From Acanthamoeba castellanii str. Neff (taxonomy: Eukaryota; Discosea; Longamoebia; Acanthamoebidae), in assembly GCF_000313135.1 (NCBI RefSeq), contig NW_004457574.1, positions 28,195-75,731 of the forward strand: a DNA stretch of 47,537 bases, in the 5' to 3' direction. The notes under the pieces are model-generated. The model saw nothing but the letters and a program-made list of their open reading frames with translations. It was not told the origin of the DNA and did not search any database. The position numbers and the translations under genes are program-made. Position 1 is the first letter of the stretch. Every line of letters starts with the position of its first letter. This document shows positions 1 to 20,400 of this stretch, piece by piece.

Positions 1-403
1 TGGAGCGTCGCGATGAAAGGCCTCCTGGCCCGGGCAATGCATCTGCAACAACACGTGGGACGTTAGGTTTAGAAAAAAAAAAAAAAGGAAAAATGGGTGG
101 AGCGTACCAAGATGGAGTGGGCCACCTAGTTCTCGGCACCTTGAACGAAAGAGAGCTGGGCGGCGTCATGGGGGGTGTGTTCCATTTTCTAAAATCTCAA
201 GACAAAAAGGAAATTGAACGAGAAGATAAAGAGCGAATGCAGAATGTTGGAAATTTGATCTTTTGGGTGCTGGGTCTGGTAGTGAGGTCGGGGTTGTGTC
301 GTCGCGGAAGGTTGGGTGAAGCTCTCTGGTGGCAGCGGTCCATTTTGAGCTCCCCCCCTTCGCGCTGTGCGTACTACCTCCGCCCTTGTCCGTTCAGTTT
401 TCG
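1..403. other. Left-edge DNA with normal CpG, no gene assigned
   Basis: CpG is present here at ordinary density up to the TCG at 402-403, so this segment belongs compositionally with the rest of the locus rather than with the CpG-empty block that follows. A run of A lies at 70-86. A 108-codon open frame (93-419, +) has no recognisable domain and low-complexity composition, and I do not call it. The segment could be the flank of a gene beyond the left edge. Confidence 0.4.
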
Positions 404-640
404 CCTACTTTTGGCATGAACAGCCTCACCATTTTTTCTGTTGTTTTCAAAGTAAAACACCATTCACACACCAAGAAGGTCATAGGTGCACTACTGAACT
501 ACATCTACAAAACCTAAGTAACCTTATATACCATTCCTTTACATATTTACTGACATATCTACACATGCCTCCTCTTCTCTCTCTCTCTCCTTCTCCTGTG
601 ATTGTGGGTTTGTTGTGTTGGCACAGCATGTGGAACATCA

Positions 641-678
641 GTGTATGTGTGTGTGCATGTGTGTGTGTGTGCATGTGC
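641..678. repeat. TG-rich microsatellite
   Basis: An imperfect (TG)n tract interrupted by CA lies just beyond the putative 5' splice site (minus strand) of the unknown gene ending at 686, so it would sit inside its next intron. Confidence 0.75.
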
Positions 679-685
679 AATTTAC

Positions 686-1407
686 CTGAAGTGGTGCTCA
701 GTGGCTCAGGAAATGCCCAAGTGTTGCAATTTTTTGCAGGAGCAGGTCCCTCATGTGCAGGCTTGTGGCCAAGTGGTGTGGCCATATTGATGGCCAACCC
801 ATTGACCACACCAATCTTGAAGCTGTTGCTGTCTGGCCCATTGGTGGCAAGCTCCTGCCACACAGTGTCTCTGTGACTGTTGTGCCTCCTTGCAATCCCA
901 CACTCATCCCAAGATCAGACACTAGGTACAGCCTCAGCATCACTCTCACTGTGGCCATCTCCTCTGTCACCCCAACAGTGGCTGCCTTGAGCACTGTGTT
1001 CACCTCAGCCAGCTCCCATGTTGCCATATCCAGGCTCCTCACCATTGTCTCCTTCCTTGTCTCCTTCACCTTGAGAAGCACCATTTTCACCTTGATCAGC
1101 TCCACTGCCACCATGAGCTGGCCCTCCAGCAGCTCCATTTTTACTGTGAGCAGATCTGTCTTCACCTGGGCCAGGCCTGCTTCCAGATCCACAAAGCTGA
1201 TCAGCAGAGACACAAAAGATGTGTAGAGATTGATGTCACATGCATACTGGGCTCACCAAAGATGAGTGTGTTTAGGTACTCCTGTGTGGGGATTGAGGCT
1301 ACCTTCTTTGCTGTGTCAAAGGCAAGCAGTCCCTTGATCATGGCTTGGGCAAGGCTCCTCACATCTTCCTTGTCCTCAATTTTGTCCTTTTGATCAAAGC
1401 AGCTCAT
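686..1407 (-). CDS. Unknown coiled-coil-like protein inside the CpG-empty block (partial model)
   Basis: Read on the minus strand, an ATG at 1407 opens a protein-like stretch (starts MSCFDQKDKIEDKEDV) up to a possible donor GTGAGC near 1258. A second stretch, about 1190-955, is rich in heptad-like Leu/Val/Met spacing and charged residues, suggesting a coiled coil, and ends at a possible donor GTGAGA. A third stretch, about 890-686, changes frame, includes the segment NGPDSNSFKIGVVNG, and ends at a donor GTAAAT. Met and Val are unusually common, as expected if ACG and GCG codons had decayed to ATG and GTG. I recognise no family. The exon joins are tentative, and it may be a pseudogene or a fragment of a mobile or viral insertion. 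Confidence 0.35.
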
Positions 1408-1655
1408 GCATGAACACTTCTCAGGTGGTCACCAGAGGCAGCATGACCCACTGAAGAGAATGGAAGAGGCCACACCAGGTCAATGCCAGGCTGGGAGGCA
1501 ATGCCAGAGGGGTGGATGATGGAGTAGGGGTGGTGGACATGGCTTTTGCTGAGTAGGCTTGAGGGTGATGTGTGCAGTAGGTGTGAGGCTACAAAAACAG
1601 CAGAGCCATCACACTGCTTTTTAAATCCTATTGAAGAATGTATGTGGATATCCTT

Positions 1656-2270
1656 GAACTTGTGGTCATTTGAAATGAGAGGTCACAAATGACTGTGGAA
1701 TTTTTGTTGTGCTAAAATCGTGTGAGATTGGACATTTTTGATTTACAGGACAGTTTTGAAGATTTGGATCTGCATGTGTGATTTTGACATGCTAGACTGC
1801 TGCTTAGAAGTGATATTGAGGGACTTGAGATGAAAATAATTTCATAAAAACTTGGAATTTGTGGAGTTAAAAGTGATTTTAGCAGTGTGGAATGGAGTGG
1901 AATTTTAACTTCAGGAATAGGGCTCCAATTCAGCACAAATGTGAAGAATGAAGTTCAGTGCATGTGTGCAACTGAGTGAATATGGTGTGAGGTTGTACAT
2001 GAACTGGATGTGAGGCCAGCATGTTGGCCACTGATTATGGAATTGATGGAGGGTATGAAAGCAAAAGCAAGGTGCAGTTTGAGGGTGTTCAGAGGAGCAC
2101 TTATGATGGTATTTTAATCTGCCATTTCTCAAGATGCTCCCAGTTTTGTCTTGCTATTCTTAAATTAAAACCATTTTTGTGTTGTCAAAACCATTTTTAT
2201 GAGCTTAAACTCACAAACAAAATCACTTTTCAAAATGACTGGACCTCTCATTTCAAATGACCACAAGTTC
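1656..2270. mobile_element. 615-bp element with 29-bp perfect terminal inverted repeats (MITE-like)
   Basis: Positions 1656-1684 and 2242-2270 are exact reverse complements over 29 bases, each beginning GAACTTGTGG when read inward from its own end. The 557 bases between them are AT-rich, contain one CpG and no convincing coding frame. Size, terminal inverted repeats and lack of coding capacity fit a non-autonomous DNA transposon. No clear target-site duplication is visible immediately outside the arms, so this could also be an old hairpin-forming duplication. Confidence 0.55.
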
Positions 2271-2351
2271 TTGATTGGCTGCTTTATTATTGCAGCCTCC
2301 TTAAGTGAGCACTGTACCACCAACCTGGACCAATGATGTTAAAGAACAACT

Positions 2352-2592
2352 TGAAATCTTGAGTGCTTCCTGGCAGTAATTTGGCAATTAAATCCCCTAA
2401 AGATCCTTGTGTTGATGATCTGATGTGTGTCAGATTGGCAGCATGTGCACACTCTGATGGCACCTGTGAACAAATCTTGTACAGTAGTTCAGGAAACCAT
2501 GTGTACTTCTTGCCAATAATTTGGCTATGATGGCTCTTGAAGTTCCTCATGTTTGTGATCTATCATGCATCAGATTGATAGCACATGCACAC
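2352..2592. repeat. Diverged direct repeat, period about 138 bp
   Basis: Roughly 100 bases from 2352 recur, diverged, from about 2490. The shared landmarks in the same order are AATTTGGC, GATCT near the middle, CAGATTG and GCACACT. The copies differ mainly at scattered positions, suggesting an old tandem duplication. No coding role is evident. Confidence 0.55.
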
Positions 2593-4049
2593 TATAACAC
2601 CCCCTTGGTACAATGGATGCTGTGGACTATGTGTAACATGTAACATCAAAACACTGTGTCCAGAAAAACGTGCCAGTGGCACCTTTTGTTAAGTAAAATC
2701 TGTACAAGTGATTTTTGTGTATGTGCAGCAAAAGCAGTACTTTTGTGAACATGGTGTGTGAGTGGTTTTGGCACAATATGTACAGAGAGTGGCAAAACAG
2801 GGAAAAATGGTGTAGGTCATGGTAAAAGCAGGTGGGGGCAATGAAGAATTTCAAGGCATAAGTGTAAAAAAAGGGCTAATGTATTTTGTTGAAAGAAGGA
2901 ACAGAACAGAGTGGAGGGAAACATTAGCCAATGGACTTCCACACTTTCCATGGACCAGAAGAGGAGGAGGAGCTGGTCTTGGGTGTGAGAGGGGCAAGGG
3001 CAGGATGTGAAGTTAGGCCTTGTAGGAAGGAAGTGATGGCTGAGATCTGACTCCTCCAGGAATTTAGAGTGGAAGGTGAGGAGCCAGTTGCCAAGAGAGG
3101 AGATGTTGCCCTCTGCTATGGGGGTAGAGGAGAGGCAGACAAAGCTGGAGTAAAGGGCAGCACAGAAGGAGAGGTAGTAGGTGGGATTTGCCTTATAGAG
3201 AATGTGGTAGGGAGTGGTGGGTGATGTGATGGGGTGGGGAGAAGGATTGGGAAGCTCTAAGCTCTGGATGAGGAAGCTGTAGAGGCCAATGTGAAGTGGG
3301 GTGTGGTCCAATGATTGAGCAGTGAGGAAAGCAGGAGCAGAGCAGACAACCTCACACATTGGGTGTGGGATGGGGATGTGGTGCAGATAGCAGAAGGGTT
3401 CAGGGATGGTGTCACTGGCCAGAGGATGCCAGATGGTGGACATGTTAACCCTCTTGTGGCTGAAGACCTGACCAGGAGACTGAGGAAGGCAAGCATTAAG
3501 ACATTCTTGTTCTCAGCAGCACAACTTGTCAGCCTGCAGGTAGAGGATAGAAGGGTGAGTGTTGGAGGTGGTGTTAGTCAAAAGGTGAGTTCAGATGTGG
3601 TGAAAGAGTGTGGAGATGACAAGGTTAGCATCTTTTGGCTGAGGGTGTAGAAAGAGGTGTTTGCCATGGCTGTGGTCAATGATACCACCAAGAACCATGG
3701 TGAATACCAAGAAGTCATCAAGCTGATCAGGATGTGGTTCAATTGCATGTGGATTCAAAAAACAGACTCATGTACCTTTTGCCTCTTGGGCTTGGGCAGG
3801 GCACATTTCTCATCCTCTTGAGGACATGACCTCTTCTCCTCCTTCTCCTTACCTGCACATTTGTTCAAGCAAGCTGCTTGATTACACTTCACACATCAAC
3901 ATTCACTCATCACTCACATTTCCAAGTTGCTTTTCTCCCGCCCTTGCACTTCACCCAGTGAGAGCTGGGGCATTTTTTAACAGGCTGGATGAACAGGATT
4001 CTCGTCAACTGGTGAGCTAAACTCCGGCTCTCGGAGCGGTGAACACACT

Positions 4050-4365
4050 CTCATTCCAAACATTCTGGAGATTACAATGTTAAGAGGGCGGTACTCGTCA
4101 TCCTACTCAATATTCTCCCAAAGAACGGATTTCGCTATCCAACACGCTTCTTTTTGTCGGATTTTCCAGGTTGAATCACCTTTCATGAATTCCGCACTTT
4201 TTCCCACCCACCCAACCAACCATACACTCGGTCAGGCTGGAAATAAAAGGGCACCCACCCTTCGCGCCGCTTCCCTCATCACTGTACCAAGTACAACCGC
4301 GAACAGCACAACACAACCCTCTCAAGTTTTTCAAGGAGACGCAGAGACCAGACCACAGCACCGCG
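4050..4365 (+). promoter_or_regulatory. HSP90 promoter: heat-shock-element-like sites and TATA-like box
   Basis: Two heat-shock-element-like sites precede HSP90. At 4057-4071 there are three contiguous 5-bp units (CAAAC, ATTCT, GGAGA) approximating nGAAn/nTTCn. At 4181-4190 the inverted pair TTTCATGAAT is perfect. An A/T-rich TATA-like sequence, AATAAAAG, lies at about 4242-4249, some 115 bp before the ATG. The sites are close to consensus but short, so binding by heat-shock factor is an inference supported mainly by the gene they precede. Confidence 0.5.
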
Positions 4366-6826
4366 ATGGCAGAGGACGTGGAGACGTTTGCCTTCCAGGC
4401 TGAGATCAACCAGCTGCTCAACCTCATCATCAACACCTTCTACTCAAACAAGGAGATCTTCTTGCGCGAGCTCATCTCCAACGCGTCGGACGCCCTCGAC
4501 AAGATCCGCTACATCGGCCTCACCGACAAGCCCGCGCTCGAGACCAACCCGGAGCTCTACGTGCACCTGGTGCCCGACAAGGCCAACAAGTGCATCCACA
4601 TCATCGACTCGGGCATCGGCATGACCAAGGCCGACCTCGTCAACAACCTGGGCACCATCGCCAAGTCGGGCACCAAGGCCTTCATGGAGGCCCTCCAGGC
4701 CGGCGCTGACGTCAGCATGTACGAGCGCCATCATTTTTATTGATTTTTCCTCTCTTTTTTTGCAACATTAACTCACCATCAATTGCAACTTCACATGCAC
4801 AACACATCAGGATTGGTCAGTTCGGCGTGGGCTTCTACTCGGCGTACCTGGTCGGCGATCGGGTGGTGGTGACGACCAAGCACAACGACGACGAGCAGTA
4901 CGTGTGGGAGTCGGCGGCCGGCGGCACCTTCACCATCAAGCGCGACACCGAGGGCGAGCCCCTGAAGCGCGGCACCAAGATCACGGTCTACCTCAAGGAG
5001 GACCAGCTCGAGTACCTCGAGGAGCGTCGGCTCAAGGACCTCGTCAAGAAGCACTCCCAGTTCATTCAGTACCCGATCTCGCTCTGGGTCGAGAAGACGA
5101 AGGAGAAGGAGGTCGAGGAAGAAGCTGAAGAAGAAGAGGAGAAGAAGAAGGCCGAGGAGGAGACTACGGCGGAGGCGCCCAAGATCGAAGAGGTGACCGA
5201 GGAGGAAGAAGAGAAAAAGGAGAAGGAAAAGAAGAAGAAAAAGGTCAAGGAGACGTACCACGAGTGGGAGCTGCTCAACAAGACGAAGCCGATCTGGACG
5301 CGCAACCCGCAGGAGGTGTCCGAGGACGACTACAAGCAGTTCTACAAGAACCTGACCAACGACTGGGAGGACTACCTCGCGGTGAAGCACTTCTCGGTCG
5401 AGGGCCAGCTCGAGTTCAAGTCGATCGTGTTCGTGCCCAAGCGCCCGCCGTTCGACCTGTTCGAGACCCGCAAGAAGCGGGCCAACGTCAAGCTCTACGT
5501 GCGTCGAGTCTTCATCACCGACGACTGCGAGGAGCTCGTGCCCGAGTGGCTCAACTTCGTGCGCGGCATCGTCGACTCGGAGGACCTGCCGCTCAACATC
5601 TCGCGCGAGATGCTCCAGCAGAACAAGATCCTGCGCGTCATCCGGAAGAACCTCGTCAAGAAGTGCATCGAGCTCTTCAACGAGATCGCCGAGAAGAAGG
5701 AGGACTTTGACAAGTTCTACGAGGCCTTCGGCAAGAACATCAAGTACGGCATCCACGAGGACTCGACCAACCGGTACGCACTCACCGCACTACGCCGCAC
5801 ACACCGCACACGACACGACACGCATGCATGTGACTCACACGACACGACACGACACACGCAGGACGAAGCTGGCGGAGCTGCTGAGGTTCCATTCGACGAA
5901 GTCGGGCGCGGAGATGACGTCGTTCAAGGACTACGTGACGCGGATGAAGGAGAACCAGAAGGAGATCTACTTCATCACGGGCGAGACCAAGAAGGCGGTC
6001 GAGAGCGCGCCGTTCGTGGAGGGCCTCAAGAGGAAGGGCTACGAGGTGCTGTTCATGGTGGATCCCATCGACGAGTACATGGTGCAGCAGCTCAAGGAGT
6101 ACGACGGCAAGAAGCTGGTCAACATCACCAAGGAGGGCCTCAAGCTCGACGAGACCGAGGAGGAGAAGAAGAAGGCCGAGGAGACCAAGAAGGCCAACGA
6201 GAACCTGTGCAAGGTCATCAAGGACATCCTCGGCGACAAGGTCGAGAAGGTACCGTCTACACTCCGACTCTCAACGTTCAACATATTGTACATCATGTTT
6301 TTTATATTCTACATTCTACATTCTACATTTTTACATTGTGCTACTGGATACTAATGACATGGCGATGGTGATGATGTAGGTGGTGATCTCGAACAGGCTG
6401 GTGGACTCGCCGTGCGTGCTGGTGACGGGCGAGTTCGGGTGGTCGGCCAACATGGAGCGGATCATGCGCGCCCAGGCCCTGCGCGACAGCTCGATGCAGA
6501 CCTACATGGTCTCGAAGAAGACGCTGGAGATCAACCCCGACCACGCGATCGTGACCGAGCTCAGGAAGAAGGCCGACGCCGACAAGAACGACAAGACCGT
6601 GAAGGACCTCGTGTGGCTCCTGTTCGACACGGCCCTGCTCGCGTCGGGCTTCTCGCTCGAGGAGCCGGGCGGCTTCGCCCAGCGCATCCACCGCATGATC
6701 AAGCTGGGCCTCAGCATCGAGGACACCGAGAGCGACCGCGTCATGGGCGACGACGACCTCCCGCCGCTCGAGAGCGAGGAAGCCAGCGCTGCTGATGAGG
6801 GCTCCAGGATGGAGGAGGTCGACTAA
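4366..6826 (+). CDS. HSP90: Cytosolic heat shock protein 90
   Basis: Exons 4366-4718, 4811-5773, 5862-6249 and 6380-6826 join in phase to give 716 residues, the usual length for cytosolic HSP90. The ATP-dependent dimeric chaperone matures kinases, receptors and other clients. The N-terminal GHKL ATPase shows [21 protein letters not shown] and [10 protein letters not shown] long Glu/Lys-rich charged linker follows (about genomic 5090-5250), then the middle domain with [16 protein letters not shown]. The protein ends in MEEVD, the cytosolic signature that docks TPR cochaperones. Introns start GTACG, GTACG and GTACC. The third exon-intron border falls inside the C-terminal dimerisation domain. 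The start is the first Met of [14 protein letters not shown], the expected N-terminus. Identification is firm. Confidence 0.97.
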
Positions 6827-14734: not shown

Positions 14735-17391
14735 TCAGCAGAAGTGAGCGGCGGCGCGACCAAGGCCGGAGCCGGTGTAGTCGGTCGTGAAGCTGTTCAC
14801 GGGCAGGTTCATGACGATGGCCACCTGGGCATCGGGCCGCGACGAAGACGGGCCGGCGGGCGACGACGTCACTCCCGATTGTGAGGCGGACAGGGATCCG
14901 CTCGGGCCGGCGCCCGCGTCCATAGATCGCACGGCGTGGGTGAGGAAGCCGCATGTGCGACACTTGTAGAGCCGCCACTTTGCGCTCTTGTTGATGGCGT
15001 TGTTGCCGCTGCCGTTGACGTTGATGGTGTTGGACTTGCTGTGGCGCAGGAGGCGCGGGACGTACTCGGCGGTGGTGTGGTCAAAGTCGCCCAGCACGTT
15101 GGCCATGGTGGTGAAGCCCCAGTTGATCTTCCCGGCCCGGTACTCGTGCTTGGCCTTCATCGCCTCGAGGAAAGCCGAACACGAGCCGACGTTGGGGCAC
15201 TTGCTCGTCTCCTTCGTCGGCTGCAAAGCATAAACATTGGTCAGCGTGTGCATGTTCGTGTGCGGTGATGTGTGCTGTGATGTGTTATATATAAAAAAAA
15301 AGGTTACCTTGCAGTCGCAGCCGAGCTTGACGAGGCTGGCATCGCCCGACGTGCCGTCGCCGCTCTCTTCCGCATCGGAGAGCAGGGCGATGATCGACGA
15401 GCCGCACAGACATTGGAACTGCTGCTTGCCCATCTGTGCCGCAGGAAACAAAACAAACAAATGAGAATTCAGAAACCCTAAAACACACACACACACGTAG
15501 CGCACACGCGCACACGCACTCAAAGGTCGCAGGGTCAGGTCATGTTACCTTGGTGAGATTGCGGAGGGCCTTGCGGTTTTCGCCCCATCGGGCCAGCTGC
15601 CGCACGAACCCGCGGTTGGGCTGGATGACGTAGCGTCGCTCCTTGACCAGGATGCAGGCCTCGAAGTAGCTGATGTCGCGGGTGTCCATCAGGAAGGCCA
15701 GCACCATGGCCGCCGAGCGCGACACGCCCCGGTCCGAGTAGACCAGGACCTTGCCCTTGCGGATCACCGCGCGGCGGATGAAGCCCACCACGCGCAGGAT
15801 CTGGGGCACGATGTCCTGGTAGGGCTCGTCCTGCATCTTGGCGTGGAGCACCTCGAAGTGGTCCCGCAGCATCGGGTTGGGCGTTATCGTGCAGTTGACC
15901 ACGTGACTGATCCCCAGCTGGCACTTGAGATAGGTGCGTTGCACCGCGCTGCTCGTCCCTATGTAAATGTTCTCCGTGATCTTGCTCGCGTGCTCCACGA
16001 AGTAGGCCGTCTCCTCCCTGGTAGTACAACAGAATACATAATATATATACAATTATTTAAATTATCGATAATAAATTGATAAAAAAATGAAATAAACCAT
16101 AAATCAAGAAAGCAAAAATGAGGGGCACAGCGAGGACGTACGGAGAGAGGATGTTCTGTACAGGCTTGTGTTGGTCCTCGACCTTCTCCACGGTCTTGTT
16201 GGCGCGCGGGATGCTGTGGGGCGAGGTCGCTGGCGACCCATCTGCACAAGCGCGCCGACCATAGGTGTTGGAACGCGTCCACCGCCTTTGGATTCCAATG
16301 GCAAGCCCGAATAGAATTGCGCACCGTTGTTGTGATCGGAAAGCGAATCGTAGAGCTGCTTCACGAAGGTCTTGCTCCGCCTGCCCTTCATGTCCATCCT
16401 CTCCATCAGCGCACTTATGATGCGAAAGAGAGAGTGCAGTCGATTAGTGTCAGTTCTTGGGGGGCGAAACAATGCGTTGAAAATGGGCGACGTACGTGGC
16501 GTGGGTCTTCTTAACGCCAGACACGAGCACGTTCTTGACCATCTGGAAGCGATTGATGACGTCGTTGATGGTGGGACGCATGTTGGGGTTGCGGAACAAG
16601 ATGAACTCCAGCAGATCCAGCAGCACCGAGTTGTTGTTGATCATGGCCTTCTTCTCGGCGTTGATAAGCTCCTGACCGGGCGACGTGACTCGAATGAAGA
16701 ATCGCACCCAATCGTTGTCGTAGAACAAGAATTGGCCTGTTGCAGTCGCATGTAAGTGCGTGCCGTGTAGTGACCACACCTCGAGGTGTGCATTGCGTCG
16801 TGTCGTACCTGTGATCAATTCGAAGAGCAGGCAGCCCAGCGACCAGATGTCCGACGCGCTGTTGGCCCCCACCTTCTTGCGTCGGTCGTAGGAGTCCTTC
16901 TGCTTCTGCAGGGCGTTGGCCACCACCAGCATCTCCGGCGACTTGATGAACTCGGTACCCCTACGCACGCGCGCGCAGCGTAAATCATCCATCAGCACAC
17001 AGGGCGGTTCGGCACGAGTCAGTCGACAGGCACTCATGCGCGTACCGGTTGCGTGTGGTGAAGCCCTCTTCCTCAGAGGTGTAGTACTTGGCCTCGCCAA
17101 AATCTGATTTGAAAGACGAGGGAGGGTGACCGTCTACGGTCAGGACCTGTTCTGCTTGTGGAATGCGAGCAATGTGGAGCGTGTGAACTGCGGTCATACC
17201 GGCAAGGACGATGAAGAAGTTGGGCACGTCGGAGGGCTGGTCGTAGAAATCCTCGTCCGTCGTGTCGGGGTTGAGCGGGTGACACAGAAAGTTGTCGCAC
17301 TTAAGGTCATAGTGATTGACATCTGGGGGGGGGTAAGGCCAGCGGTGAACATCAGTCGCACGCACCGCCGCACGCGCACAAGAACACATAC

Positions 17392-17450
<59 letters not shown>

Positions 17451-20400
17451 TAAAGGACGTACGGTTCTGGGTGAGGAAGAGCATGGTTTCCAGGACCTTC
17501 TCGTATATGTTGAGGTAGAGAGGCAGATTCTCGAACCAGGGCGTACGCTGCCGCTTGAGCCAGCCCTTGAGCGAATCCTTGTAGAGGCGCATGATGATCC
17601 AGAAGTTCTCCTCGTCCACGCCGTAGTCGTACAGGTGCACGATCTTGGGGTCGTTCTTGAACTTGTCCATCACCATGATCTCGGTGAAGATATCGTGCAG
17701 CACGCACCGATCATGCATCGACTTGGGAACCGTCATCCGCTTCACCGCCACCTCCATCTAATAACAGATTGCAATTAAGATTCGAATTGTTCGCATACCA
17801 AAAGAAAAAGTCAAGTGCGCTCTATCATACCTTCTCGCTCTCGAGGGAGGCGCGGTAGACCTGGCCGTAGGCGCCGCTGCCGATACGGATGAGGTTCTTG
17901 TAGGTGCTGGCGTCGAAGAGGCGACGGCATAGGAGCTTGAGCAAGCGATAGTTGGAGGCGCCCATCTTCAGGGTGCGCTCCACCAGCTCGGGGATGATGC
18001 CGGCGTTGACCTCGTGATTGAGATCTACGCAAGCGAAGCGAACGAAAGAAAGAAGAAAGAACGAAAGAGAAGCGAAGAAAGAAGACGATGAGTACATCAT
18101 CTAAAAGACGTCAAAGGGTCGTAAGAGACGAAGCTTCCGGACGTACGCAGCGTGAGGTAGAACGGGATGTTGAGCTTCTTGTTGTTCACCGGGAACTGAT
18201 CGTTGTAAAGCGGCTCCAACGTATTGCTGGCGGAAAAGCTCAATTAGCTCTGCACACGCACATGCAATGTGCGAGCACGTGAGGCGGACATACTTGGGAG
18301 CGAGCATCAAGGAAAAGATGAGCTGCAGAATGGACATCTGGAGGTCCTTGGAGCGGTAGATCTTGCGGTCCTCCCGCTCTCGCTCGTACAAACGCCGCTC
18401 CATGATAATATCATCGGGCGACAATGTGTTCTGGCGTTGATTCTATAGAAAAACAACATGTTTCCGGCGCATCAGTATATTAGAGGCAATCATGTACATG
18501 TGCGGTGGTGCTCGAGTGGTTTTTGAGTACCTTATCGTCTTCCTCGTGCGATGAGTAAGGGTTGCCGAGTAGGAGCTGCAGCTTGGGGTCGTCCGGATTC
18601 ATCTGCCGCTCCAGGTTCGACAGGAACCCGAACGCCTGGTCCACCTCGTAGTAGCCCAAGCTCTCGTCCGAAAACGCCAGGTCCTCCGCCTGCTTTTTTG
18701 CGGCCTGCACGCTCATGTATGGGCCATATTAGCTTCTTTCCGAGACCGACCAATCAACCGTTCGCTTGAGAGAGCAGTGCCGGCAATCCGTACGGTTTCG
18801 TTGCCGTTGCTGGCCTCATCCGCCGGCGGCTTGCTGGAGGCGGCGACGGTGTTGTCGGCGTGGGAGGCGATTCCCGAATGGCGGGGCGAGCCTCGCCCCA
18901 TGCCCATGCGCACACCCAGCTTGCTGCCACTCGTTTTCATGAGCAGCGCGCCTGCGACGTTTCGGTTCAGGTGAGCTCAAGTGAAACAAATGCGTGACAG
19001 AGGGTGGGAAGAGTACGTACCCAGTAGGCCCTTTTTCTCTTTGCCGCCGCCGGCTTCGTTATCACCCTTCTTCTTTACATCCGTGAGGTTGAGCGCGGGC
19101 ACGAAGGACTGCTTGCGCGCTGGCACGTCCTCCTCCTCGCTGCTATCACTCGATTCGCTCGCGACGCTGCACGCACACGACACGACACGACACGACACGA
19201 TACAGTCAGCACATTTATGGTCCTTAGGCAAGGGGTTCGTCACGTGCCTCTCTTCTTTCTGGTCGAAGAAGTGCTGCGGGAGCTTCTGCAGAGACATGGA
19301 CACTGGTCGCTTGGAACCGTTGCTGCCGATGGCGATGCACGACCCGCCCTTGCTGCGCATGGGGTCGAAGCCCAGCCGGTTGGCGGCGCCGGTGAGGAGT
19401 CGCATGGAGAGGGCCGTCTTCATCTTGTCCGAGTGCGGGTTGCGCGCCGAGCTGACAGAGGCGATGGCGGCTGCAGCGGTGGCCGACGCCGCGGCAGAGG
19501 CCGCCGGAATCGAGGAGGTCGAACCGCCCGAGCCTAAGGCCACCGACGCCGCGGCCGTTGAGGCCATAGACGGCGAGGGCGGGGCCATCATGAAGAGGCT
19601 GTTGCTCACCGACTTGATGTCGTTGCTGCCCTTGCCGTTCGACAACTCGGACAACCTGAGCGAAGGGAGGTCTTCGTGGTGCGGCGGCGCATAGTCGCGG
19701 TGATCTCCAATGCTCAAGTTTTCCGGTTTCTTCTCCTCGGCGGCTTCTGGCTCCGCGCTTGTCTCGGTGGCCCCTGTTGCCGCAACGGCCGGCTCCACGT
19801 CTTCGTTCTTCGTCGGGTCGCTGGTGGAGCCGTTGGCTTCCTGGTCCCGCGGCGACTTGGCGGCGATGGGCACGCCGCTCTTGAGGATGTTGGACGGGAG
19901 TGACAGGCCCAGCGGTCGCTTCTTCGGTCGCCGATCGCTGTCGTCGCTGTCGCTCGACGACGACGAGTCCTCGTCTTCGCCGCCGTGGCTGCCCTGCTTC
20001 GGGGGCGGCGGCAGTCCACCCTTGCAGATGCCAGAGGGAAGTGAGAGCGCCAGCCCCAGCCGCTTCGGTTTGTTGTCAACGCTGTCGTCGGACGAGCTGT
20101 CGTCGCTTTCGTTGTCGCTCGCGCTTGCGCCGTCGTCTTCGTTCTTTGGTCCGAGCGACGAGGGCGATTTGGCCGGCTGCGAGGCGCCCAGAGGGCCGCC
20201 CTTCATCAGGCCGGGTGGGATGCTCAGGAAGGGCAGCTTCTTTTTGTTCCTCCTCCTCTCCTCTTCGCTGTCCGTCTCGTCACTCTCACTCTCACTCTCA
20301 CTCTCGCTCGGCTTCTCGCTGACACTCTCGCTCGACTTGGCTTTGTCGCTCGGCACCCCTCCGCTGCCCTTGAGAATGCTGGCGGGCAGCAGCAGCGCCG

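What the first reader, a model, noticed from the sequence alone, without database searches (positions are those of the whole stretch)
404..3938. A 3.5-kb CpG void with knife-edge borders
Only two CpG (1719, 2669) occur in about 3,535 bases of moderate GC, while the flanks and the other 43 kb are CpG-rich. TG and CA are in excess. Such near-total loss over a sharply limited block implies targeted, sustained CpG methylation and deamination of a silenced insertion, or insertion of DNA from a donor with a CpG-poor genome. Either would be notable: the first points to an active silencing system in an amoeba, the second to horizontal transfer.
Basis: partly seen in the sequence, partly recalled or inferred. 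Interest (0 to 1): 0.88.

Follow-up and report, generated by a model that had tools for sequence, protein, structure and literature searches.

The report
Transposon graveyard stripped of CpG
A 3.5-kb stretch of Acanthamoeba castellanii DNA, made of dead jumping genes and the DNA beside them, has lost almost every CpG; copies of one of these elements elsewhere in the genome show that CpGs are destroyed after insertion, hundreds of times faster than other sites mutate in the youngest copies, much like the fungal defence called RIP.

Summary
The void is real: 2 CpG in 3,535 bp against about 187 expected (O/E 0.011; rest of window 1.03). The genome is Acanthamoeba castellanii Neff, apparently the 2013 Illumina/454/Sanger assembly. 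The block is not one insertion but a mosaic: a 613-bp TIR element (4-bp TSD CTTG), a rearranged piece of a larger DUF7869-type DNA transposon (817 bp plus a 237-bp inverted piece), another repeat fragment, and single-copy DNA that is also CpG-free. Eleven copies of the larger transposon, one still CpG-rich, show the history: 113 of 119 CpG sites appear as both TG and CA among copies, so CpGs were lost independently after insertion. In five young copies CpG cytosines changed about 490-870 times faster than other sites; non-CpG cytosines show no comparable excess. Depletion runs 175-650 bp into flanking DNA, then stops. Outcomes are strand-coordinated over up to about 400 bp, though not in the two youngest altered copies. 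CpG methylation of repeats is published for this strain (retrotransposons mainly), making 5mC the likely cause. Whether deamination is passive and unrepaired, or active and RIP-like (my searches found no report in amoebae), is open. A CpG-poor donor is rejected for the larger transposon; a nanopore artefact is unlikely.

The parts
404..3938 (.). CpG void (2 CpG)
404..1482 (.). CpG-free DNA, single copy at DNA level apart from one 40-bp match at 638-677 (TG-rich); no Pfam domain above cut-off in the three open frames tested
1483..1645 (.). repeat fragment found at 3 other places at 91-97% identity (C235, C65, C180), plus two shorter matches (C47, C229)
1657..2269 (.). element A: 613-bp internally deleted TIR transposon; 29-bp perfect inverted pair at 1656-1684 / 2242-2270, of which 28 bp are read as the TIR; a related copy runs to about 1.34 kb
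1653..1656 (.). left target-site duplication CTTG of element A
2270..2273 (.). right target-site duplication CTTG of element A
2650..3466 (+). element B: terminal 817 bp (TIR AACACTGTGTCC) of a larger DUF7869-type DNA transposon; other copies 93-97% identical
3468..3704 (-). element B: internal fragment from the DUF7869 coding part, inverted relative to 2650-3466
3705..3938 (.). single-copy CpG-free DNA next to the transposon; read as spreading zone (inference)
4366..6371 (+). start of the HSP90 gene (ATG at 4366, an intron near 4.73-4.81 kb, by eye); CpG resumes 427 bp upstream of the ATG. End coordinate is that of an open frame, not of the gene

Best explanation
The void is a graveyard of DNA-transposon relics beside the HSP90 gene of A. 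castellanii Neff. Transposon B arrived with a substantial CpG content, and after insertion its CpGs were changed to TpG or CpA independently in each copy (both shown by the copy alignment). Adjoining host DNA over 0.2-0.65 kb shares the depletion and the TG/CA excess (shown); that this was lost after the insertion, by spreading, is inferred. The likely chemistry is CpG 5-methylation by the cell's silencing methyltransferases followed by deamination to T (inferred; methylation of repeats in this strain is published, mainly for retrotransposons). Loss ended where the silenced domain ended, on the right 427 bp before the HSP90 start codon, giving knife-edge borders (inferred). CpG cytosines in five young copies changed about 490-870 times faster than other sites, so in effect the process works like repeat-induced point mutation restricted to CpG. 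Whether an enzyme drives the deamination or it is passive and unrepaired is not settled; the first two rivals are those two versions.
For: (1) One copy of element B (L040) keeps 113 CpG in 2,950 bp (O/E 0.64); nine other long copies keep 5-31 (O/E 0.07-0.20). (2) 113 of 119 sites with any CG show both TG and CA among 11 copies; the next-highest control dinucleotide shows 7 of 197. (3) At sites lost in two copies, outcomes agree in 0.37-0.61 of cases in the pairs with 40 or more sites (e.g. L037/L046 33 of 61, with 3 of 1785 non-CpG differences), so losses are mostly private to each copy. (4) CpG hazard per cytosine over private non-CpG rate: L037 605, L046 707, L038 874, L043 615, L039 489; L047 322, window 259, L044 234, L045 110, L042 80; the CpG-rich copy L040 24. 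(5) Private non-CpG changes show no comparable C-to-T excess: 29 C>T/G>A, 20 A>G/T>C, 70 transversions. (6) In 9 of 9 B loci picked because the outer flank regains CpG (from 17), depletion continues 175-648 bp past the transposon end with pooled TG/CA 1.73/1.68 against 1.16/1.28 beyond. (7) Interior stops in reverse transcriptase matches are 23 TGA, 2 TAA, 0 TAG and in integrase matches 9 TGA, 0, 0, as CGA-to-TGA predicts. (8) Cytosine-C5 methyltransferase matches are in the genome; CpG methylation of repeats in Neff is published.
Against: Methylation of this block was not and can hardly be measured. Elements A and B are DNA transposons, and Sarre et al. report that DNA transposons overall are not enriched for 5mC, though some inserts are highly methylated; elements with no CpG left cannot show it. 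Element A copies share fixed TG/CA at many sites, so that family had largely lost CpG before it spread, and one pair of A copies has no CpG-type difference at all (L019/L024). DUF7869 matches have stops 15 TGA, 9 TAA, 4 TAG, less skewed than the other two families. A short-read assembly can blur near-identical copies and vote out private changes, which would inflate the ratio. The single-copy part 404-1482 reaches over 1 kb from the nearest repeat fragment, farther than the measured spread. The state of the flanks before insertion is unknown.
Confidence: 0.85

Rival explanations
1. Version 1 of the best explanation, active: an enzyme-driven, RIP-like process recognises repeats or their 5mC and deaminates many CpGs on one strand of a tract in one event, followed by spreading into flanks.
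For: Outcomes at CpGs of the same copy agree more than chance at close range (0.629 at <25 bp, 0.600 at 25-50, 0.560 at 200-400; within-copy shuffle 0.53; 0 of 400 shuffles reach each) and not beyond 400 bp by that control; copies differ in strand bias (chi2 p 1.6e-8; L038 24% TG) while sites do not (p 0.99). Seven of 10 copies (L040 left out) have fewer TG/CA runs than shuffles at p<0.05. L040 and L046 each have 2 private non-CpG changes, yet lost 4 of 112 and 62 of 78 CpGs, which looks like a switch rather than a clock. Retention depends on the 3' base: CGR 3%, CGY 20%, p 9e-8 over 111 sites.
Against: The two youngest altered copies (L037, L046) and the window copy show no clustering, where single bursts should show it best. 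A second region of the element gave p 0.064. The coordination length is close to the 400-bp pseudo-reads of the assembly, so mosaic assembly may shape it. No APOBEC_N match was found, but that search has no positive control. Repeat-dependence was not tested.
Confidence: 0.38
2. Version 2 of the best explanation, passive: stably methylated CpGs deaminate spontaneously and the T:G mismatches go unrepaired in silent chromatin, in a host whose ordinary mutation rate is very low.
For: CpG-only target, both TG and CA products, extent like a methylated domain. No clustering in the two youngest altered copies. With recalled figures (5mC deamination near 5e-8 per day; amoebozoan base mutation near 3e-11 per generation) a ratio of several hundred to 1000 is possible without any enzyme.
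Against: Independent events in duplex DNA should give no strand clustering, no copy-specific strand bias and no contrast such as L040 against L046. A uracil-glycosylase-family match exists, so T:G repair may be present, although its substrate is unknown.
Confidence: 0.5
3. Sequencing or assembly artefact, such as methylated C miscalled as T.
For: Such errors would also give TG/CA at CpG only, independent in each copy, in methylated DNA. Only one of the five Neff contig lengths equals a contig length seen here, so the assembly version is inferred.
Against: The 2013 Neff assembly was made from Illumina, 454 and Sanger reads (PMC4053784 passages), not nanopore. ACA1 records of Neff match this genome: P0034 (ACA1_205900) shares 6 of 7 exact 25-residue blocks with the window, P0029 shares blocks with L047, and its contig length of 614,167 equals that of C93. 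CpG retention falls from 21-25% in the youngest altered copies to 0-11% in the others rather than being all or none.
Confidence: 0.04
4. DNA acquired from a donor with a CpG-poor genome, or an element that evolved CpG-free.
For: Element A copies share fixed TG/CA at many sites and have few CpG, so that family partly spread in a CpG-poor state.
Against: Element B has a CpG-rich copy, and the others lost CpG independently. The CpG-free state also covers DNA beside the transposons, which at 3705-3938 is single-copy.
Confidence: 0.03

Closest known systems
5mC silencing of transposons and giant-virus insertions in Acanthamoeba castellanii Neff (PMC12344493; PMC12210455)
   Same: Same strain; CpG methylation on repeats and silent DNA, heterochromatin marks, domain-like extent.
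   Different: The passages I saw describe methylation, not its mutational result. In term searches of the two texts 'hypermutation' and 'repeat-induced' do not occur; 'deamination' occurs once, in a reference title of PMC12344493, and not in PMC12210455. PMC12344493 reports no general enrichment on DNA transposons.
Repeat-induced point mutation (RIP) of ascomycete fungi (recalled)
   Same: C-to-T changes on either strand, private to each repeat copy, far above background, leaking into flanks.
   Different: Neurospora RIP prefers CpA and acts before meiosis (recalled); here the target is strictly CpG and the timing is unknown. Host is an amoebozoan.
RIP-like TpCpG hypermutation of Microbotryum (PMC5381629, passages)
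   Same: CpG-centred hypermutation of transposons found by comparing copies.
   Different: There 1.7 of 35 target sites per copy are mutated on average; here 74-100% of L040's CpG sites are lost in the altered copies and the context bias is CGR over CGY. Microbotryum is a fungus.
CpG decay of methylated repeats in vertebrate genomes (recalled)
   Same: CpG to TpG/CpA after insertion, TG and CA excess.
   Different: The excess there is of the order of tenfold (recalled), against about 490-870-fold in five young copies here.

Membership tests
Passive 5mCpG decay | Changes confined to CpG, with both TG and CA products | tested here: met
   113 of 119 sites with both products; no comparable non-CpG C>T excess
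Passive 5mCpG decay | Sites mutate independently of their neighbours | tested here: inconclusive
   same-strand clustering up to about 400 bp overall, in 7 of 10 copies, but absent in L037, L046 and the window copy; mosaic assembly not excluded
Passive 5mCpG decay | Loss proportional to time since insertion | tested here: inconclusive
   L040 and L046 with 2 private changes each differ 4/112 vs 62/78 in CpG loss; counts are small
Passive 5mCpG decay | The locus is CpG-methylated | not testable with these tools
   no methylation data; 2 CpGs remain
Repeat-induced point mutation (RIP) | C-to-T hypermutation of repeated DNA, private to each copy | tested here: met
   element B. Element A is mostly fixed TG/CA
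Repeat-induced point mutation (RIP) | CpA as main target (Neurospora; recalled) | tested here: not met
   CA in excess in the void (1.69); only CpG lost
Repeat-induced point mutation (RIP) | Strand-coordinated tracts | tested here: inconclusive
   present in 7 of 10 copies, absent in the youngest; weak in a second region
Repeat-induced point mutation (RIP) | Dependence on duplication, sexual phase and a RID-type methyltransferase | not tested
   needs experiments; methyltransferase matches present but not classified
DUF7869-type TIR DNA transposon (elements A and B) | Terminal inverted repeats | tested here: met
   A: 29-bp inverted pair in the window; B: CACTGTGTC at both ends in L047 and L048
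DUF7869-type TIR DNA transposon (elements A and B) | 4-bp target-site duplication | tested here: met
   A: exact in 6 of 12 TIR pairings, including the window; some pairings may join ends of different copies. B: 2 of 2
DUF7869-type TIR DNA transposon (elements A and B) | Encodes a DUF7869 protein | tested here: inconclusive
   B: met, L071 and L072 frames E 3e-8 and 1e-8. A: only DUF7869 matches near A copies on C210 and C124. The window pieces themselves gave no Pfam match
Non-LTR retrotransposon (LINE) | Reverse transcriptase in full copies, no far TIR | tested here: not met
   no above-cut-off RVT_1 match within about 6 kb inward of the B ends, coordinates compared by eye; TIR at far end

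The most novel reading that the evidence does not exclude
A. castellanii has an active, RIP-like genome defence outside the fungi: once a transposon is silenced, a methylation-guided deamination process strips nearly all its CpGs in strand-coordinated tracts, with preference for CpG followed by a purine, and spreads a few hundred bases into neighbouring DNA until it meets an active promoter.
Probability: 0.33. Interest if true: 0.87.

Novelty: new variant of a known kind. Interest (0 to 1): 0.62.

Why it matters
Transposon copies here record their own silencing. The mutational scar shows where methylation probably acted even when no CpG is left to assay, so methylomes that find DNA transposons unmethylated may miss old targets. 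A CpG mutation rate hundreds of times the background, if confirmed on long reads, would be either the first sign that I could find of RIP-like hypermutation in an amoeba (searches, open-licence papers only), or an extreme case of unrepaired 5mC decay. Both can be tested in a strain with published long-read and methylation data. The sharp stop next to HSP90 gives a model for how active promoters may limit heterochromatin spread in this lineage.

Tried and rejected
LINE reading of element B: copies with one fixed end and varied truncation suggested a 5'-truncated, 5'-inverted LINE. Rejected: TIRs at the far ends of L047 and L048, 4-bp TSDs, a DUF7869 frame, and no reverse transcriptase match inside.

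Void as one insertion with a TSD: CCGCCCTTG occurs at 380-388 and 3938-3946, but 39 of 2000 random 60x60 comparisons (pairs under 200 bases apart skipped) give 9 bp or more, no TIR was found, and 389-403 holds two CpGs. Not used.

Nanopore artefact: considered because the pattern would look alike; made unlikely by the assembly methods, given that this is the 2013 assembly. Viral copies of element A: 0 exact TIR matches in viral contigs. Protein domains in four open frames of the void: none above cut-off. APOBEC_N: no match, and no positive control. Second test region for strand clustering: 8 copies, 21 sites, p 0.064. Element A as a second copy test: few CpG-bearing sites, many fixed TG/CA; its bivalent-site count (28) cannot be told from TA ancestry. 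In one search the C94 methyltransferase piece was given in the wrong strand and matched nothing; the frame is seen on the minus strand. tRNA scan of 1-6000: none.
Full report
WHAT WAS CHECKED. The void is as described: two CpG in 3,535 bases, O/E 0.011, TG 1.58 and CA 1.69, against O/E 1.03 in the other 44,002 bases. About 187 CpG would be expected; the three longest CpG-free runs of the window are all inside it, and the next is 158 bp. Among other dinucleotides CA and TG are clearly up; CC, GG, CT, AG and TC differ more mildly from the rest of the window.

ORGANISM AND ASSEMBLY. The window is C84:28195-75731 of a 38.4-Mb, 250-contig genome. A protein search with an open frame from element B returned 8 proteins, 5 of them named as Acanthamoeba castellanii Neff records with ACA1 numbers. 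P0034 (ACA1_205900) shares 6 of 7 exact 25-residue blocks with the window itself, inside the void, and P0029 (ACA1_199590) shares blocks with L047 on C93. The contig length given for P0029, 614,167, equals that of C93; the other four lengths equal none of the contig lengths I saw, so the assembly version is inferred. The 2013 Neff paper (passages seen) used Velvet-assembled Illumina contigs cut into 400-bp pseudo-reads together with 454 and Sanger reads. A nanopore miscall at methylated CpG is then excluded, but blurring between near-identical repeats is not.

ANATOMY. A search of the void against its own genome gave 104 matches (40 of 153 candidates scored, so counts are lower bounds). Element A occupies 1657-2269 with perfect inverted ends and a CTTG duplication. 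Another copy is 1,339 bp long, so the window copy is internally deleted. Element B occupies 2650-3466, starting at a fixed end AACACTG; 3468-3704 is a piece from further inside the same kind of element, turned round. Two B copies have the inverted end at both sides and 4-bp duplications, and B loci encode a DUF7869 protein; the 3468-3704 piece overlaps DUF7869 matches elsewhere. DUF7869 matches also lie near A copies on C210 and C124, so A and B may be of one superfamily; this rests on position only. The part 1483-1645 is repeated at three other places. The parts 404-1482 and 3705-3938 have no other copy at DNA level beyond one 40-bp TG-rich match; 2274-2649 has one 52-bp match and was not searched alone. 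HSP90 begins at 4366.

CPG LOSS HAPPENS AFTER INSERTION. Copies of B were aligned over up to 2,950 bp (11 rows including the window). L040 has 113 CpG (O/E 0.64); L037 has 31, the other eight long copies 5-17, the window's 817 bp one. Of 119 sites where any copy has CG, 113 have TG in some copies and CA in others; the highest count for another dinucleotide under the same rule is GC, 7 of 197. At sites lost in two copies, the outcomes agree in 0.37-0.61 of cases for the pairs with 40 or more sites (e.g. 44/98, 59/97, 33/61); pairs with few sites scatter more, from 0/2 to 16/22. Copies thus lost most of their CpGs separately from a CpG-bearing source.

RATE. Private non-CpG changes are few in the young copies: L037 3 of 2637, L046 2 of 1784, L038 4 of 2667, L043 5 of 2659, L039 4 of 1412. 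Their CpG losses are 83 of 111, 62 of 78, 102 of 110, 100 of 111 and 45 of 48. Hazard per CpG cytosine over private rate is 605, 707, 874, 615 and 489. L040 gives 24 (4 of 112 lost). The private counts are small, so each ratio is rough. Private changes at non-CpG sites over all copies are 29 C>T or G>A, 20 A>G or T>C, 70 transversions. The same surplus is seen in pairs from other repeat loci, for example L022/L024 with 4 of 697 non-CpG differences and 12 CpG-type differences; a counter-example is L019/L024, 4 of 546 and none.

SPREAD AND EDGES. From 17 B loci I took the 9 whose outer flank regains CpG. In all 9, depletion continues 175-648 bp past the transposon end. Pooled, the depleted flank has CG 0.06, TG 1.73, CA 1.68; beyond it CG 0.76 (0.41-0.96 by locus), TG 1.16, CA 1.28. 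I did not test whether these flanks are single-copy, and their state before insertion is unknown. Spread would account for single-copy CpG-free DNA at 3705-3938 and for sharp edges. The 1.08 kb at 404-1482 is longer than the measured range; it may hold relics too old to recognise.

ACTIVE OR PASSIVE. For an active process: neighbouring outcomes within a copy agree at 0.629 (<25 bp), 0.600, 0.576, 0.582 and 0.560 (200-400 bp) against 0.53 in within-copy shuffles, with 0 of 400 shuffles as high in each bin, and not beyond 400 bp; copies differ in strand bias, sites do not. Retention is 3% at CGR and 20% at CGY (111 sites, p 9e-8). L040 and L046 have equal private counts but very different CpG loss. 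Against: L037 and L046, the youngest altered copies, show no clustering; a second region gives p 0.064; YCGY and RCGR, which mirror each other, differ (p 0.037), which a strand-symmetric enzyme would not give; and the tract length is near the assembly's pseudo-read length. I lean slightly to passive but unrepaired 5mC decay with some strand-asymmetric component, and keep an active RIP-like process as a strong second.

GENOME-WIDE SIGNS. Interior stops in reverse transcriptase matches: 23 TGA, 2 TAA, 0 TAG in 11 of 31 matches. Integrase: 9 TGA in 6 of 18. DUF7869: 15 TGA, 9 TAA, 4 TAG in 44 matches, less clear; introns may add stops. Cytosine-C5 methyltransferase matches lie on four contigs (three confirmed with Pfam, the fourth given in the wrong strand there). 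By eye (recalled motifs) C155 looks DNMT1-like and C215 like a bacterial-type enzyme.

LITERATURE. Sarre et al. 2025 (abstract, section 6 and passages): Neff methylation is at CpG, on LINE and LTR copies, younger ones above all, and on silent genes; DNA transposons show no general enrichment though some inserts are highly methylated. Blais et al. 2025 (passages): giant-virus insertions in Neff are methylated. My searches for RIP or hypermutation in Acanthamoeba or amoebae (listings only) and for RIP-like processes outside fungi (listings only) showed no such report by title and abstract start. The library holds open-licence papers only.

VERDICT. The void itself is ordinary for repeats of this genome; the copy-by-copy record of fast, CpG-only, post-insertion loss is the notable result.

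Noticed in passing
L040 alignment against other B copies: CpG followed by A or G is lost more completely than CpG followed by C or T (retention 3% vs 20% over 111 sites). The mirror contexts YCGY and RCGR differ (0.17 vs 0.05), which a strand-symmetric process would not give.
   Followed up: partly
Element A long copies (L015, L016, L019, L020, L024, L029), about positions 1028-1079 of the 1,342-bp query copy: A patch of about ten CpGs within 50 bp is kept in 6-8 copies although the rest of the element is almost CpG-free.
   Followed up: no
window 1-403 and C84:8195-28194: The two 10-kb stretches just left of the window read N throughout (L035, L036), so the void lies 403 bp from a gap or withheld stretch.
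   Followed up: no
L019:2243-2796 and L024:2804-3350: Two element A copies differ at 4 of 546 non-CpG sites and at no CpG-derived site, so some A copies seem to have spread after losing CpG.
   Followed up: no
void, element B region: A database protein, ACA1_205900 of Neff (181 aa), shares 6 of 7 exact 25-residue blocks with the window in the void, so this relic seems to be annotated as a gene.
   Followed up: no
window, e.g. 17194-17707 and 5700-5800: Many open frames contain low-complexity runs (CVCVCV, TRHDTHTTRHD) as if TG- or CGACA-rich repeats sit in many introns.
   Followed up: no
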